A stretch of DNA of 44,017 nucleotides from an uncultured Oscillibacter sp. (GTDB lineage: Bacteria; Bacillota; Clostridia; Oscillospirales; Oscillospiraceae), in NCBI GenBank assembly GCA_949959305.1, contig CATLJA010000009.1, positions 1 to 44,017 of the forward strand, written 5' to 3'. How positions within the stretch are numbered: position 1 is the first letter of the stretch; each line of letters opens with the position of its first letter. Below, piece by piece: positions 1,140 to 44,017 of this stretch. The notes beneath the pieces are model-generated. The model saw only the letters and a program-made list of their open reading frames with translations. It had not been told where the DNA came from and did not search any database. The translations under genes were made by a program, and so were the position numbers.

Positions 1140-1781
1140 ATGAACAAGAGGATCAGGAAAAAACAGCTCAAGAGGGCGCTGCACGAATTGATTGCCGCCT
1201 ATGACGAGTATGAGGCGGCGCGTGAGCGTGTTTTTCGTAAGGCGCTGCAAGATGTGACAGACGTTGTCTCTCTAGACGAGTTGCTGGACAGCATCAGCGA
1301 GGAACAAATCAACCAGGAGGAAATCGCCAGATTTAAGGCGCAGATTGCGGATAACGAGGTCAAGCTGGAAGAAGCCCGGCAGTTCAAGGCCACGCTGTAT
1401 GAGAATTTTATCGCAAATCTTATCAGTAAAAAGGACTATCAGGACTTGAAAGACCTCTACACAGAGCGGGCGGAGCAGGCGCAGGAGGCCATTGACCGTC
1501 TGCGGGACGAAATGGAGCTGGTGACGAACAACAGCAGTTCCCGTCTGCGGTGGACCCAGCACTTCAAAGAGTTCTCCGCCATGACCACGCTGGACCGGCG
1601 GGCGGTGATCGCCATGGTACAGTCCATTCGGGTGAATGGCAAAAATGATTTGGTTATTACCTTCCGTTACCTGATTGAATACGTCAAGGTGCTGAAACGA
1701 CTGGACCGACTGGGGAAACTCACACCTGACCTGCGGGAAATTCTGAACACGCTGACGGCGGAAGAAAAGGAGGCGGCATAA
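1140..1781 (+). pseudogene. Large serine recombinase, C-terminal coiled-coil part only
   Basis: The 213 residues match the C-terminal helical/coiled-coil tail of clostridial large serine recombinases: the stretch from AQIADNEVKLEEARQF through LYENFIANLISKKDY and RLRWTQHFKEF to DRRAVIAMVQSIRV is typical of that tail. The catalytic resolvase domain, recombinase domain and zinc ribbon (about 300 residues) are absent. The fragment nevertheless has a good site (AGGAGG near 1130) and an ATG right after a terminator, so it could be translated alone. Its stop is directly followed by the ATG of the next recombinase fragment. I read it as the surviving tail of the first of two tandem recombinase genes. 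Confidence 0.7.
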
Positions 1782-39664: not shown

Positions 39665-39693
39665 GTCTCCAGAAAGCACAACTGAATACTTTG

Positions 39694-39820
39694 TCTTCAG
39701 GGCGGGGCGCAATTCCCCACTGGCGGTACAGTCCGCGACCGGAGGCCGTTTTCCCACGCACGGCCTTCGCCGACCCGGTGAAACTCCGGGACCAACAGTT
39801 ACAGTCTGGATGGAAGAAGA
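39694..39820 (+). ncRNA. FMN riboswitch (RFN element)
   Basis: All conserved blocks are present: TCTTCAGGGCGGGGCGCAATTCCCCACTGGCGGT split over 39694-39726, AGTCCGCGA, then GGTGAAACTCCGGGACCAACAGTTACAGTCTGGATGG and the closing GAAGA. It binds FMN and lowers expression of riboflavin genes. A possible downstream terminator pairs CACCTTGGA (39875-39883) with TCCAGGGTG (39897-39905) before TTTT, so control may be at transcription. The control target is ribU at 39935. Confidence 0.97.
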
Positions 39821-39934
39821 TGAATGCGGTTTTAGGGACCGCGCCCTTTCGGTGCGCTTCTTTGCTGCTTGGTTCACCTTGGAGAAGTCAAAGGATTCCA
39901 GGGTGTTTTCAAGTATGTAAAGGAGTGTTTTCTT

Positions 39935-40639
39935 ATGTCCAACTTCGATTCCAACGCCGGCGCCATCCCCGCCGCCCGTCCCCGGGTGACCGTCAAAACC
40001 GTCACGTCCCTGGCCATGCTGGTGGCCCTGACCTACCTGGCCATGCTGCTGAGCAACCTGCTGCCCAAGGTGGCGGGCTTCCTGCAAATGGAAATCAAGG
40101 GCACCGTCATCGCCATCGGCGGCTTCCTCTTCGGGCCCCTTTCCGCCGCCGTCATCTCCATTGTGGTGGCCTTCATCGAGATGTTCACCGTCAGCGACAC
40201 AGGAATTATCGGCTGCATCATGAACCTGCTGGCCGCCTGTGCCTTCGCCTGCCCCGCCGCCTTCATCTACCAGAAAATGCGCACCCGCAAGGGCGCGGTC
40301 ATTGGCCTGACCGTGGGCGTTCTCGCTCTGACGGCCACCATGCTCCTCTGGAACTACCTCATTACCCCCATCTACATGGGCATGGACCGGGAGGAGGTCG
40401 TCGTCCCCATGCTGACCACCGTCTTCCTCCCCTTCAATCTCGTCAAGGGCGGGCTGAACATGGCCCTGACCCTGATTCTCTACAAACCCGTGGTCACCGC
40501 CCTGCGGAAGGCCCGGCTGGTCCCCGAGCGGGAAAACGCCCAGGGCGGCGACCGCTTCGACGCGGGCTTCCTGCTGTTCTCCCTGGCTCTGCTGGCCACC
40601 TTCGCCCTGCTGGTGCTGGTGCTGGCGGGGAAAATCTGA
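39935..40639 (+). CDS. ribU: Riboflavin transporter substrate-binding subunit (ECF type)
   Basis: 234 residues, about six membrane helices: SLAMLVALTYLAMLLSNLLP, FLQMEIKGTVIAIGGFLFGPLSAAVISIVVAFIEMF, TGIIGCIMNLLAACAFACPAAFIYQ, GLTVGVLALTATMLLWNYLITPIY, FLPFNLVKGGLNMALTLILY and FLLFSLALLATFALLVLVL. The pattern EIKG....GGFLFGPLSA...SIV is typical of RibU. It works with the shared energizing module EcfAA'T encoded elsewhere. The FMN riboswitch supports riboflavin as substrate. The start at 39935 follows AAAGGAG. Confidence 0.94.
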   Translation: MSNFDSNAGAIPAARPRVTVKTVTSLAMLVALTYLAMLLSNLLPKVAGFLQMEIKGTVIAIGGFLFGPLSAAVISIVVAFIEMFTVSDTGIIGCIMNLLAACAFACPAAFIYQKMRTRKGAVIGLTVGVLALTATMLLWNYLITPIYMGMDREEVVVPMLTTVFLPFNLVKGGLNMALTLILYKPVVTALRKARLVPERENAQGGDRFDAGFLLFSLALLATFALLVLVLAGKI

Positions 40640-40824: not shown

Positions 40825-41196
40825 TTGGTCATTCACGAATCCGCGGAAGACTACCTGGAGTCTATACTCATCATTCAGCAGCAGTCCGGCCAGGTCCGCT
40901 CCATCGATGTGGTGAACAAGCTGGGATACTCCAAGCCCAGCGTCAGCATCGCCATGAAGAAACTGCGGGAGAGCGGCTATATCACCATGGCCGGGGACGG
41001 GAACATTACCTTGACCGAAAGCGGCATGGAAATCGCCAGCCGCATCTACCACCGCCACAGAACCATCACCCGGCTTTTCGAGCTGATGGGCGTCTCCCCG
41101 GAGCAGGCCGCCATCGACGCCTGCAAGGTGGAGCACGACCTCAGCGAGGAGACCTTCGGGCGCATCTGCGCCTATGTGGAGGAGCGGCCCGTGTGA
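40825..41196 (+). CDS. Metal-dependent regulator, DtxR/MntR family
   Basis: 123 residues beginning at a TTG codon (AGAAGGGAGGCG lies upstream; no in-frame ATG is better placed). The winged helix is ESAEDYLESILIIQQQSGQVRSIDVVNKLGYSKPSVSIAMKKLRESGYITMAGDGNITLTESG. The dimerisation part is IYHRHRTITRLFELMGVSPEQAAIDACKVEHDLSEETFGRI, which contains the His (HRH) and E-H (VEHDLS) metal ligands of the MntR type. B. subtilis MntR has 142 residues, so this is slightly short but complete. There is no C-terminal SH3 domain. The metal is not certain; manganese or iron are usual. Confidence 0.85.
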   Translation: MVIHESAEDYLESILIIQQQSGQVRSIDVVNKLGYSKPSVSIAMKKLRESGYITMAGDGNITLTESGMEIASRIYHRHRTITRLFELMGVSPEQAAIDACKVEHDLSEETFGRICAYVEERPV

Positions 41197-41290
41197 CCCG
41201 CCGCCGCGCTTTCGCGGGAAGCTCCCGGGCGGGGCGGAAGTTTCCGGCGTTTTGTCTAAAAAGAGGCGGGGAAGTTTTCCGTTTGGGGGC

Positions 41291-41319
41291 TTGCATTCCC
41301 GCAGATTTTCCGGTACAAT
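41291..41319 (+). promoter_or_regulatory. Promoter of ssnA-ygfK
   Basis: TTGCAT (41291-41296), 17 bp, TACAAT (41314-41319). Transcription would start near 41326, leaving a leader of about 150 nt. Confidence 0.75.
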
Positions 41320-41340
41320 AAAATGCAATAAGCAAGGATA

Positions 41341-41443
41341 GATGGCTGCAACGGAGTGCCGCGCGCACGGGCCCGCACCTGTCTCTCCGTGCGGACCGAT
41401 AGGTGTTTCAAGTCCGGGTGGATTTGGGGCGCCTTTCTTTTTT
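41341..41443 (+). ncRNA. Candidate riboswitch/attenuator leader of ssnA, class not recognised
   Basis: Hairpin 1 is CGCACGG (41364-41370) with CCGTGCG (41387-41393). Hairpin 2 is GGAC (41393-41396) with GTCC (41412-41415). The loops are complementary over 7 nt: CACCTGT (41376-41382) with ATAGGTG (41399-41405, one wobble). Alternatively 41401-41415 pairs completely (five wobbles) with 41420-41434 around loop GGGT, followed by TTCTTTTTT (41435-41443): an intrinsic terminator. The terminator needs the AGGTG loop and the GTCC strand that the first fold uses, so the folds exclude each other. It resembles no riboswitch I can name; the conserved purine-riboswitch core is absent. Confidence 0.62.
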
Positions 41444-41476
41444 ACCCAAATTCCAATTTTAAGGAGGAGCTTCACT

Positions 41477-42820
41477 ATGATTTTACTGGCAAACGGTAGG
41501 CTCATTACCCGGGACCCCGCCGGCGCGGGCTATCTGCCCGACGGCGGCGTGGTTGCCGACGGCGGGAAAATCGTGGAGGTGGGAGCCACGGCGGACCTGA
41601 AGGCCAAGTACCCCCAGGCGGAGTTCGTGGACGCAAAAGGCGGAGTCATCATGCCCGGCCTTATCAACGCCCACACCCACATTTACTCCGCCCTGGCCCG
41701 GGGCCTCTCCATCAGCGGCTACGCCCCCACCAACTTTTACGAGGTGCTGGACGGCCAGTGGTGGTACATTGACCGCCACCTGGACCTGGCGGCCACCAGG
41801 GCCAGCGCCCAGGCCCTGGTGATCGACTCCATCAAGCAGGGCGTCACCACCATCTTCGACCACCACGCCTCCTTCTGCGAGATCCCCGGCTCCCTGGCGG
41901 AGATTGCCGGGGTGACCCGGGAGATGGGGCTCCGGGCGTGCCTCTGCTATGAGGTCAGCGACCGGGACGGGGAGGAGAAATCCCTCCAGTCCATCCAGGA
42001 GAACAAGGACTTCATCGACTACTGCGAGTCCTGCCCCAGCGATATGCTCAAGGCCATGTTCGGCGGCCACGCCCTGTTCACCATCTCCGACAAGACCTTT
42101 GAGCGGATGGCCGCCGCCAACAACGGCCGGGCGGGCTACCACATTCATGTGTCCGAGGGCATGAACGACGTGTACGACAGCCTCCAGAACTACGGCCGCC
42201 GCCCAATCCAGCGGCTCCAGGACCACGGGATTCTCGGCCCCAAGACCATCCTGGGCCACTGCATCCACGTGAATACGGCGGAAATGGATATCATCAAAGC
42301 CACGGACACCATGTGCGTCAACAACCCGGAGAGCAACATGGGCAACGCCGTGGGCTGCTCCCCGGTGCTCCAGCTCATAAAAAAGGGCGTCCTGGTGGGC
42401 CTGGGCACCGACGCCTACACCAACGACATGCTGGAGAGCATCAAGGCCGCGCTGACCATCCAGCGGCACAACGCCTGCCTCCCCGGCGTGGGCTGGTGCG
42501 AGGTGACGGACATGCTCTTTAAGAACAACGCCAAAATGGCGGCCCGGGCCGGGTTCCCGGAGCTGGGCGTTTTGAAGGCCGGAGCCGCGGCGGACGTGAT
42601 TGTCATGGACTACAAGCCCTTCACGCCGTTTTCCGACGCGAATATCGACGGCCACATGCTCTTCGGCATGACGGGCCGCCAGTGCCAGACCACCATGGTG
42701 AATGGCAAAATCCTGATGAAGGACCGCCAGCTCACCGAAATCGACGAGGAGGCCGTCAACGCGCAGATTCTGGAGGTTTCCAGGAAGCTGTGGGGCACGC
42801 TGAACCACTGCGAATACTGA
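41477..42820 (+). CDS. ssnA: Amidohydrolase SsnA (putative aminohydrolase)
   Basis: 447 residues of the amidohydrolase superfamily. MILLANGRLITRDP starts the small beta domain; MPGLINAHTHIYSALARG gives the HxH metal pair (about residues 63-65). YHIHVSEG and LGHCIHVN hold the two further histidines; LVGLGTDAYTND gives the catalytic Asp, and AARAGFPELGVLKAGAAADVIVMDYKPFTPF the C-terminal hallmark. SsnA lies in gene sets for selenium-dependent molybdenum hydroxylases and purine catabolism, next to ygfK, as here. Deamination or ring opening of a purine-like compound is inferred. AAGGAGGAGC precedes the ATG. A structured leader controls it. Confidence 0.93.
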   Translation: MILLANGRLITRDPAGAGYLPDGGVVADGGKIVEVGATADLKAKYPQAEFVDAKGGVIMPGLINAHTHIYSALARGLSISGYAPTNFYEVLDGQWWYIDRHLDLAATRASAQALVIDSIKQGVTTIFDHHASFCEIPGSLAEIAGVTREMGLRACLCYEVSDRDGEEKSLQSIQENKDFIDYCESCPSDMLKAMFGGHALFTISDKTFERMAAANNGRAGYHIHVSEGMNDVYDSLQNYGRRPIQRLQDHGILGPKTILGHCIHVNTAEMDIIKATDTMCVNNPESNMGNAVGCSPVLQLIKKGVLVGLGTDAYTNDMLESIKAALTIQRHNACLPGVGWCEVTDMLFKNNAKMAARAGFPELGVLKAGAAADVIVMDYKPFTPFSDANIDGHMLFGMTGRQCQTTMVNGKILMKDRQLTEIDEEAVNAQILEVSRKLWGTLNHCEY

Positions 42821-42848: not shown

Positions 42849-44017
42849 ATGTCCGAGCTGATGACTCCCATCCCGTTCCGGGAACTGATGACCTGGATGA
42901 CCGCCGAGTACCAGAAGGAGGGCGCCGTTTTCGGCGTTCACAAGCCCTACCGGGCGGGCGTGAAGACCCTGCCCATCTTCGGCGAGAAAATCGAGACCCC
43001 CTTCGGCCCCGCCGCCGGGCCCAACACCCAGCTGGCCCAGAACATCATCGTCTCTTACTTTGCCGGGGCCCGGTTCTTTGAGCTGAAAACCGTCCAGAAG
43101 ATGGACGGCGCGGACCTGGCCGCCTGCATCAGCCGGCCCTGCATCCTGGCGGAGGACGAGTGCTACAACTGCGAATGGTCCACGGAGCTGTATGTCCAGC
43201 AGGCGTTTGAGGAATACGTGAAAGCCTGGTGCGCCTGCAAAATCATGGCGAAGGCCTACGGCCTGGGCGACCCCAACGCCTTTGTGTTCAACATGTCCGT
43301 GGGCTATGACCTGGCGGGCATCCAAGGCCCCAAGGTGGACAAATTCCTCACGGAAATGACGGACGCCTCCCGGGCCCCCATTTTCCAGGAGTGCGTGAAG
43401 GTCCTCAAGGAGTTCTTCCCCGGCGAGGCGGCGTTCATCGACTCCATCAGCCCCCGCGTCTCCGGCAGCGTCACCCTCTCCACCCTCCACGGCTGCCCGC
43501 CGGACGAAATTGAGCGCATCGCCAGCTACCTCATTGAGAAAAAGCGCCTCCACACCTTCGTCAAGTGCAACCCCACCATCCTGGGCTACGAAACCGCCCG
43601 CTCCATCCTGGACGGCATGGGCTACGGCTATATCGCCTTCGACGACCACCACTTCAAGGAGGACCTCCAGTACGAGGACGCGGTTCCCATGTTCCGCCGC
43701 CTCCAGGCCCTGGCGGACAAGTGCGGCGTGGAGTTCGGCCTGAAGCTCTCCAACACCTTCCCCGTGGACGTGAAGGCCGGGGAGCTCCCCAGCGGGGAGA
43801 TGTACATGGCGGGCAAGTCCCTCTTCCCCCTGACCACCGCCATGGCGGCCCGGATTTCCCGGGAGTTCGGCGGCCGCATGCGCATCAGCTACGCCGGCGG
43901 CGCGGACGCGCTGAACATCGGCAAGCTGTTTTCTCTCGGCATCTGGCCCATCACCATGGCCACCACCGAATTGAAGCCCGGCGGCTACCAGCGCTTCGTC
44001 CAGATCGGCGGCAAGCT
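42849..44017 (+). CDS. ygfK: Putative selenate reductase subunit YgfK, partial
   Basis: 389 residues are seen; the gene runs off the right end (full length about 1,000). MSELMTPIPFRELMTWMTAEY is the standard opening. IFGEKIETPFGPAAGPNTQLAQNIIVSYFAGARFFELKTVQ is a dihydroorotate dehydrogenase-like flavin barrel motif, and GFVKCNPT-like HTFVKCNPTILGYE and MRISYAGGADALNI follow. The iron-sulfur and FAD parts expected C-terminally are outside. YgfK is linked to selenium-dependent molybdenum hydroxylases; its reaction is not established. AGGAGGAACG lies before the ATG, 28 bp after ssnA, so the two form one operon. Confidence 0.92.
   Translation, partial: MSELMTPIPFRELMTWMTAEYQKEGAVFGVHKPYRAGVKTLPIFGEKIETPFGPAAGPNTQLAQNIIVSYFAGARFFELKTVQKMDGADLAACISRPCILAEDECYNCEWSTELYVQQAFEEYVKAWCACKIMAKAYGLGDPNAFVFNMSVGYDLAGIQGPKVDKFLTEMTDASRAPIFQECVKVLKEFFPGEAAFIDSISPRVSGSVTLSTLHGCPPDEIERIASYLIEKKRLHTFVKCNPTILGYETARSILDGMGYGYIAFDDHHFKEDLQYEDAVPMFRRLQALADKCGVEFGLKLSNTFPVDVKAGELPSGEMYMAGKSLFPLTTAMAARISREFGGRMRISYAGGADALNIGKLFSLGIWPITMATTELKPGGYQRFVQIGGK

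What the first reader, a model, noticed from the sequence alone, without database searches (positions are those of the whole stretch)
41326..41476. Leader RNA of ssnA-ygfK: kissing hairpins mutually exclusive with a terminator, a probable undescribed riboswitch
Seen directly: a promoter 150 nt upstream of ssnA; two adjacent hairpins (41364-41393 and 41393-41415); 7-nt loop-loop complementarity (41376-41382 with 41399-41405); and an alternative uninterrupted 15-bp hairpin (41401-41434) ending in TTCTTTTTT. The kissing loop and the hairpin-2 strand lie inside the 5' arm of the terminator. This fits a switch in which the folded aptamer blocks termination (ON switch). Kissing loops resemble the purine riboswitch in overall shape, but its conserved core residues and the usual P1 are not found. 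The downstream genes belong to purine/selenium-molybdenum metabolism, so a purine derivative or the molybdenum cofactor are plausible ligands (inference).
Basis: partly seen in the sequence, partly recalled or inferred. Interest (0 to 1): 0.85.

Follow-up and report, generated by a model that had tools for sequence, protein, structure and literature searches.

The report
ssnA RNA: uric-acid pathway switch
The RNA in front of this bacterium's ssnA gene belongs to a catalogued RNA family (Rfam ssnA RNA), and it likely works as a switch that would turn on genes of uric-acid breakdown when a purine of that pathway is present, which gives the RNA a short list of predicted ligands that can be tested.

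Summary
The leader is not undescribed. Rfam RF03031 (ssnA RNA, typed Cis-reg, not riboswitch) matches 41336-41383 at 44.0 bits, cut-off 37.3. The conserved core is 41344-41373.

In 186 leaders the first recognised gene is ssnA (175), nfnA-like (3), DUF6198 (2), hyuA (1) or undetermined (5). ssnA and hyuA belong to the reductive uric-acid pathway published in 2025; two nfnA-like copies lie near its ygeW gene. In 27 of 164 leaders the terminator uses bases of aptamer pairs, so the two exclude each other: an ON switch. The window is not one of these; there the ON direction is a co-transcriptional prediction, and at equilibrium the terminator wins even with the aptamer formed.

The ligand is inferred, not measured: uric acid or 2,8-dioxopurine (yanthine).

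The parts
41291..41319 (+). Plausible promoter: TTGCAT, 17-nt spacer, TACAAT; predicted start near 41326
   Evidence: Read by eye; none found by the consensus scan. TANNNT occurs upstream of the core in 130 of 163 leaders against a mean of 101 in letter-shuffled flanks: weak support.
41336..41383 (+). ssnA RNA, Rfam RF03031, full model 1-48
   Evidence: 44.0 bits, cut-off 37.3, E 6.8e-9 for the whole window; alignment.
41344..41373 (+). Conserved core (predicted aptamer): P1 41344-41347/41370-41373, internal loop 41348-41355 against G41369, P2 41356-41359/41365-41368
   Evidence: All 8 pairs standard in the window. A3, 37 distinct cores: 99.7% of 296 cells paired, covariation score 0.155 against 0.122 shuffled, 0/500; the number of pairs with changes on both sides (2) is not above shuffles (162/500).
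41336..41345 (+). P0 5' strand: pairs with 41379-41388; its inner pairs use 41344-41345, which P1 also needs
   Evidence: A1: 89.3% of 169 cells paired; pair 7-52 is UA 13, AU 2, GU 2; covariation score 0.151 against 0.096 shuffled, 0/500, but pairs changed on both sides and pair types are not above shuffles (363/500, 391/500). Present in the minimum-energy fold.
41379..41388 (+). P0 3' strand; overlaps the antiterminator 5' strand
41376..41383 (+).
   Evidence: Pairs with 41398-41405; 94.8% of 153 cells in A1, one-sided changes only.
41398..41405 (+). AT 3' strand GAUAGGUG; its last five bases are the foot of the terminator 5' arm
41401..41434 (+). Intrinsic terminator hairpin, 15 pairs, followed by TTCTTTTTTA
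   Evidence: conserved, with changes on both sides in three pairs.
41477..42820 (+). ssnA (447 aa); ribosome-binding site about 41461-41469 (read by eye)
   Evidence: NF005540 611 bits (cut-off 444), TIGR03314 543.6 (455.5).
42849..44017 (+). ygfK, 5' part, runs off the contig
   Evidence: TIGR03315 587.8 bits over profile 1-388 of 1012; below the whole-protein cut-off of 835.3 because the gene is cut.

Best explanation
The leader of ssnA-ygfK carries an ssnA RNA (Rfam RF03031) that likely acts as a transcription-terminating ON riboswitch, in which a purine of the reductive uric-acid pathway (uric acid or yanthine, predicted) would stabilise the small aptamer and thereby block the terminator. 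Shown here: the Rfam match, the conserved P1/P2 core, the terminator, the competing pairings and the gene neighbourhoods. Inferred: in the free RNA the tail CUGUCUCUCC pairs with the 5' strand GGAUAGAUGG (P0), which takes two bases away from P1, and the terminator forms (OFF). When ligand holds P1 together, P0 would be weakened, the tail would pair with GAUAGGUG (antiterminator) and the terminator foot would be blocked (ON). Untested: that a ligand binds at all, and which. I lean to yanthine over urate by a little, because the RNA mostly sits in front of the enzyme pair (SsnA and YgfK) that consumes yanthine.
For: (1) Family. (2) Direct exclusion: in 27 of 164 leaders the terminator hairpin breaks at least one aptamer pair, in 24 of them four or more of the eight. 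Several designs reach the same exclusion: capture of the 3' half of the core (L106, L076, L063, L195), of the 5' half (L129, L168), and of the internal-loop sequence CUGUAAC (L095, L108, L112). In the 24 such leaders of the script's class 'direct', forcing the aptamer lowers mean terminator probability from 0.88 to 0.09 and 23 fall by more than 0.2; this follows by construction from the shared bases. (3) Window type: P0 covaries by score; AT and terminator are conserved. Forcing P1+P2 in the window transcript from 41326 raises AT from 0.04 to 0.95 at nt 41405 and from 0.23 to 1.00 at nt 41428; before the terminator is complete AT is raised or unchanged in 17 of 17 A1 leaders, though those transcripts start 2 nt before the Rfam match. 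(4) Genes: first recognised gene ssnA in 175 of 186 leaders, nfnA-like in 3, DUF6198 in 2, hyuA in 1, undetermined in 5. Genome G748 has three copies, before ssnA, before hyuA with a MocA-like gene, and before nfnAB-like genes near ygeW and carbamate kinase. In 7 of 15 longer loci further pathway genes follow on the same strand. 102 of 110 RNA-positive genomes among 400 have SsnA over cut-off. (5) The window's genome also encodes YgeW and YgeY side by side. (6) A commentary recounts these pathway genes as uric-acid-induced in gut bacteria (PMC12990295, part 1 of 2 read).
Against: No binding or expression data. At equilibrium the full window leader keeps its terminator with the aptamer forced (0.98 to 0.96; 0.94 to 0.93 with a longer 5' flank), so the window's own switching is a kinetic prediction only. 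Without its two inner pairs P0 is compatible with P1 and the terminator, so an OFF switch is not excluded for the window type. Of 93 leaders with the terminator 3-35 nt after the core 44 lose more than 0.2 of terminator probability and 2 gain; in the 33 with a more distant terminator there is no net effect (0.79 to 0.77; 6 fall, 4 rise). In 4 leaders the terminator starts right after the core without conflict (L073, L077, L081, L179), and none of these responds. AT has no compensatory change in A1 and one in A2; P0 in A2 is nearly invariant and gives no covariation. The script found no terminator in 10 of 164 leaders. xdhD follows the RNA on the same strand in only 2 of 15 loci and no further copies turned up in 40 genomes. 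25 of 127 SsnA-positive genomes have no RNA hit.
Confidence: 0.5

Rival explanations
1. Same RNA, but the regulator is an RNA-binding protein (an attenuator or antiterminator protein) that grips the conserved hairpin, not a small molecule.
For: The core is small (about 30 nt) with strongly conserved loop letters, a size also fit for a protein site; nothing here tests binding.
Against: The core is kept while the platform around it varies widely, as in aptamers; part of the invariance is built in by the strict-core filter. No candidate protein was looked for.
Confidence: 0.17
2. Same RNA and ON logic, but the ligand is molybdenum cofactor, molybdate or a selenium species.
For: SsnA and YgfK were tied to selenium-dependent molybdenum hydroxylases (PMC2276186, passages); in L089 a MocA-like gene (TIGR03310, below cut-off) follows hyuA.
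Against: The first genes behind the RNA (ssnA, hyuA, nfnA-like, DUF6198) are not molybdenum enzymes by their families. No molybdenum-cofactor riboswitch match at E<=10 on 41200-41550.
Confidence: 0.08
3. OFF switch in the window type: P0 without its inner pairs is part of the ligand-bound fold, so ligand frees the terminator.
For: P0 outer pairs, P1 and the terminator can coexist; P0 covaries by score.
Against: ssnA also stands behind leaders whose terminator is built from the aptamer itself, which would have to be ON; the two bases that pair only with the P1-breaking part of P0 are invariant in 45 of 45 A2 leaders.
Confidence: 0.12
4. The first reader's kissing-hairpin aptamer, a new class.
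For: The pairings can be drawn in the window.
Against: Both hairpins fail in most of the 16 relatives; hairpin 1 uses the 3' half of the Rfam core.
Confidence: 0.02

Closest known systems
Rfam RF03031, ssnA RNA
   Same: Score above the gathering cut-off, same P1/P2, same downstream gene.
   Different: Rfam types it only as Cis-reg; its 48 positions end before the AT 3' strand and the terminator. Its first description (Weinberg et al. 2017) is recalled; that paper is not held, so I cannot say what it states about function.
Xanthine riboswitch (NMT1 motif)
   Same: Also a hairpin with a conserved internal bulge, binding xanthine and uric acid, near purine-oxidation genes (PMC7373994, abstract and passages).
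   Different: No match of 41200-41550 to it at E<=10 (that the family is in this Rfam copy is recalled). NMT1 is an OFF switch, likely acting on translation, found in Proteobacteria.
Purine riboswitch, pbuE-type ON switch (recalled)
   Same: Works alike in one respect: the terminator takes bases of the aptamer, seen in 27 of 164 relatives, not in the window.

Membership tests
RF03031 ssnA RNA | Covariance-model score at or above the gathering cut-off | tested here: met
   44.0 against 37.3 bits
RF03031 ssnA RNA | P1 and P2 with conserved internal loop | tested here: met
   All 8 pairs standard in the window; A3 99.7% of 296 cells. The outermost Rfam pair (positions 8-39) is not a standard pair in the window.
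RF03031 ssnA RNA | Upstream of ssnA | tested here: met
   The ssnA start codon at 41477 lies 94 nt beyond the end of the match
Metabolite riboswitch (functional kind) | Specific ligand binding | not testable with these tools
   No binding data
Metabolite riboswitch (functional kind) | Aptamer fold exclusive with an expression platform | tested here: inconclusive
   Clear in 27 of 164 relatives; in the window only as a kinetic prediction
Xanthine riboswitch (NMT1) | Match to the family model | tested here: not met
   No hit at E<=10 on 41200-41550
Purine riboswitch | Match to the family model | tested here: not met
   No hit at E<=10 on 41200-41550
Purine riboswitch | Kissing loops between two conserved hairpins | tested here: not met

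The most novel reading that the evidence does not exclude
The ssnA RNA is a natural riboswitch for yanthine (2,8-dioxopurine), the intermediate of anaerobic uric-acid breakdown described in 2025: Oscillospiraceae read this metabolite directly with a 30-nt aptamer and evolved several unrelated terminator designs around it to turn on uric-acid degradation.
Probability: 0.28. Interest if true: 0.87.

Novelty: new member of a known kind. Interest (0 to 1): 0.6.

Why it matters
Rfam lists the family without a riboswitch label, and the enzymes behind it were given a pathway only recently. Joining the two gives a short list of ligands for the RNA, named cultured hosts in which to test it (for example Flavonifractor plautii ATCC 29863, L166), and a possible RNA-level control of uric-acid removal by gut bacteria, which bears on gout. 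If the ligand is yanthine, the RNA would be a sensor for a metabolite of which PMC12507026 says that it is unclear whether it has any biological activity.

Tried and rejected
Rejected: an undescribed class; the kissing-hairpin aptamer; purine, NMT1 and molybdenum-cofactor families (no hit at E<=10).

Searches that added nothing: a model of my own (R1) in 40 genomes gave back the 44 copies already known; in 295 genomes of the order 9 match, all of the window's family. In a phylum sample 4 of 398 match, 2 over cut-off; the two weak ones (L003, L004) lack the strict core and show no ssnA in the 1.5 kb held and were dropped.

Rows dropped or late: three weak family hits (G463, G582, G617; 23-24 bits) were left out of all counts. 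Fetched at the end, G463 is a real copy (L305, ssnA 259 nt on), the other two show no pathway gene. L208 (a Phycisphaerae contig) matched the pattern, has no pathway gene and was dropped as chance. The 186 leaders are 113 + 51 + 22 places with 183 distinct 80-to-90-nt stretches; the terminator analysis covers 164 of them and leaves out the 22. 'First recognised gene' means the first tblastn hit of a set of pathway proteins; an unlisted gene between is possible where the gap is long (L035, L056).

Errors of mine: one search used a wrong reading frame for SsnA, so its SsnA results are void and were replaced. One search failed through a script slip and was redone. In one search the transcripts begin 2 nt before the Rfam match, which drops a P0 extension of the window; one search repeats the window with the predicted start and is the one to trust.

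Papers: PMC12507026, PMC7373994, PMC7266159 and PMC2276186 as passages; PMC12990295 part 1 of 2; PMC11109978 only a term search (no ssnA); others as search listings. Searches for this RNA in print: in an open-access library, with listings capped at 40 of 1,125 papers and 15 of 85; none of the listed papers is about this RNA by title or term count.

Full report
What is there. The window ends in ssnA (41477-42820) and the 5' part of ygfK (42849 to the contig end), both identified by NCBIfam models. Before ssnA lies an RNA that Rfam already knows: RF03031, ssnA RNA, positions 41336-41383, 44.0 bits against a gathering score of 37.3. Rfam types it Cis-reg, whereas the FMN riboswitch of the same window is typed riboswitch.

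The terminator 41401-41434 is real and conserved, three pairs with changes on both sides. The 7-nt complementarity is at the stated coordinates and extends to 8 bp. The two hairpins are not conserved: on an alignment of the window and 16 near relatives (A1) hairpin 1 is paired in 65.6% of the cells with letters and hairpin 2 in 51.5%. Hairpin 2 does beat most shuffles on covariation (6 of 500 reach its score), but slid controls score nearly as high, and only the window forms all four of its pairs. I therefore read the "kissing" segment as a helix of its own, the antiterminator.

The core. Of 115 Infernal hits analysed, 113 carry a strict core. In the window the conserved part is 41344-41373: P1 of 4 pairs, an 8-against-1 internal loop, P2 of 4 pairs. 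In 37 dissimilar cores 99.7% of 296 cells pair and the covariation score is 0.155 against 0.122 in shuffles (0 of 500); two pairs change on both sides, which is not above shuffles (162 of 500). In 133 unique cores the outer P1 pair is standard in 132 (AU 85, GU 38, GC 9). The core letters were also the search filter, so the invariance of the loop is partly built in.

Platforms. By script, 164 leaders fall into 93 with the terminator 3-35 nt after the core, 33 with a more distant one, 28 where it begins within 2 nt of the core or inside it, and 10 with none found. A recount by pairs shows that in 27 of the 164 the terminator hairpin breaks at least one aptamer pair, and in 24 four or more of the eight; this includes L195, L129 and L168, whose hairpins I set by hand. 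In L129 and L168 the terminator captures the 5' half of the core (-43.4 and -37.8 kcal/mol); in L106, L076 and L063 it contains the 3' half. L042 also has a shorter hairpin of the relay kind, so its place is uncertain. L111, L113 and L115 have a comparable hairpin, but the U run is several bases away. Leaders of the exclusive kind cannot hold aptamer and terminator at once, so whatever stabilises the aptamer should favour read-through. Forcing the aptamer lowers mean terminator probability from 0.88 to 0.09 in the 24 script-found exclusive leaders (23 fall by more than 0.2; the exception, L104, shares one base), which follows by construction; the 4 that only touch the core do not respond. For the whole class of 28 the figures are 0.90 to 0.22, and 0.41 with P2 alone forced.

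The window type. Three pairings compete: P0 (41336-41345 with 41379-41388), the antiterminator AT (41376-41383 with 41398-41405) and the terminator. P0 covaries by score: pair 7-52 of A1 is UA in 13, AU in 2 (the window and L194) and GU in 2; 0.151 against 0.096, 0 of 500, while the counts of doubly changed pairs and of pair types are not above shuffles. P1's outer pair changes from AU to GC in the same two sequences. The inner pairs of P0 use the same bases as P1. In 45 sister leaders (A2) P0 pairs in 99.6% of cells but is too invariant to show covariation, and AT pairs in 100% with one compensatory pair. Folding the window transcript from the predicted start, AT at nt 41405 rises from 0.04 to 0.95 when P1 and P2 are forced, at nt 41420 it is high either way (0.94 and 1.00), at nt 41428 it rises from 0.23 to 1.00; once the terminator is complete it wins in both cases (0.98 free, 0.96 forced). 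The ON direction of the window is thus a kinetic prediction, joined to the logic of the exclusive leaders. Among the 93 leaders of the near class 44 lose more than 0.2 of terminator probability and 2 gain; in the distant class there is no net effect.

Genes. Of 186 leaders (113 + 51 + 22 places) the first recognised gene is ssnA in 175, nfnA-like in 3 (L095, L108, L112), hyuA in 1 (L089) and a DUF6198 membrane protein in 2 (L203, L225) (Pfam was run on L225 only, L203 was assigned by its matching start); 5 have too little sequence held (L032, L113, L163, L173, L216). Genome G748 has three RNAs: before ssnA; before hyuA with a MocA-like gene; and before nfnA-nfnB-like genes, with ygeW and carbamate kinase close by on the other strand. 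G683 has two, with ygeW and a carbamate kinase near the second; G774 has two, the second on a contig of 4.4 kb. The DUF6198 cases sit beside a xanQ-like permease gene on the opposite strand, followed in L203 by ssnA and ygfK. In 7 of 15 longer loci further pathway genes (xdhD, hyuA, ygeX, ygeY, ygeW or yqeA) follow on the same strand. Across 400 genomes, RNA hits occur in 110 and SsnA over cut-off in 127, together in 102; of the 8 RNA-only genomes, 2 (G582, G617) are sub-cut-off hits without pathway genes and 6 have the RNA near a contig end or only a fragment of SsnA. The genomes are related, so the Fisher value is not a probability. The window's genome has YgeW (770.9 bits) and YgeY (593.2 bits) next to each other on contig C4; 24 and 25 of 41 genomes of the genus have them over cut-off.

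Ligand. PMC12507026 (passages) reports that XdhD reduces uric acid to 2,8-dioxopurine (yanthine), that YgfK and SsnA together open the ring, and that HyuA, YgeW, YgeY and YgeX carry on to pyruvate and ammonia; the word riboswitch does not occur in its main text. [quoted passage not shown] The common denominator of the genes behind the RNA is this pathway, so uric acid and yanthine are the first candidates; a molybdenum or selenium ligand fits less well because the first genes behind the RNA are not molybdenum enzymes by family. All of this is inference from gene neighbourhoods.

Verdict. What is added is the place of the core, the competing pairings, a terminator logic seen in several designs, a regulon view and a testable ligand list. 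None of the papers listed in my searches (capped listings of an open-access library) is about this RNA; the paper recalled as its first description is not held.

Noticed in passing
window 39689-39825: FMN riboswitch RF00050 (106.4 bits) upstream of an ECF transporter substrate component (about 39938-40639, Pfam PF12822), likely riboflavin uptake.
   Followed up: partly
window 40825-41196: Small MntR/DtxR-like regulator (below NCBIfam cut-offs) between the ECF gene and the ssnA leader.
   Followed up: no
L203 about 1752-1779 (-) and L225 2855-2882 (+): ssnA RNAs before a membrane gene (DUF6198 by Pfam on L225; YczE-like below cut-off), facing away from a xanQ-like permease gene; a candidate purine transporter of the pathway.
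   Followed up: partly
L095, L108, L112: ssnA RNAs before nfnAB-like genes; the terminator pairs the conserved CUGUAAC of the core with GUUACGG.
   Followed up: partly
L124, L156, L170, L190: ssnA RNAs close to the ribosome-binding site with no terminator found; possibly translational control. L221 looks alike.
   Followed up: no
25 genomes (such as G405, G569, G572): SsnA over cut-off but no ssnA RNA hit; how they are regulated was not looked at.
   Followed up: no
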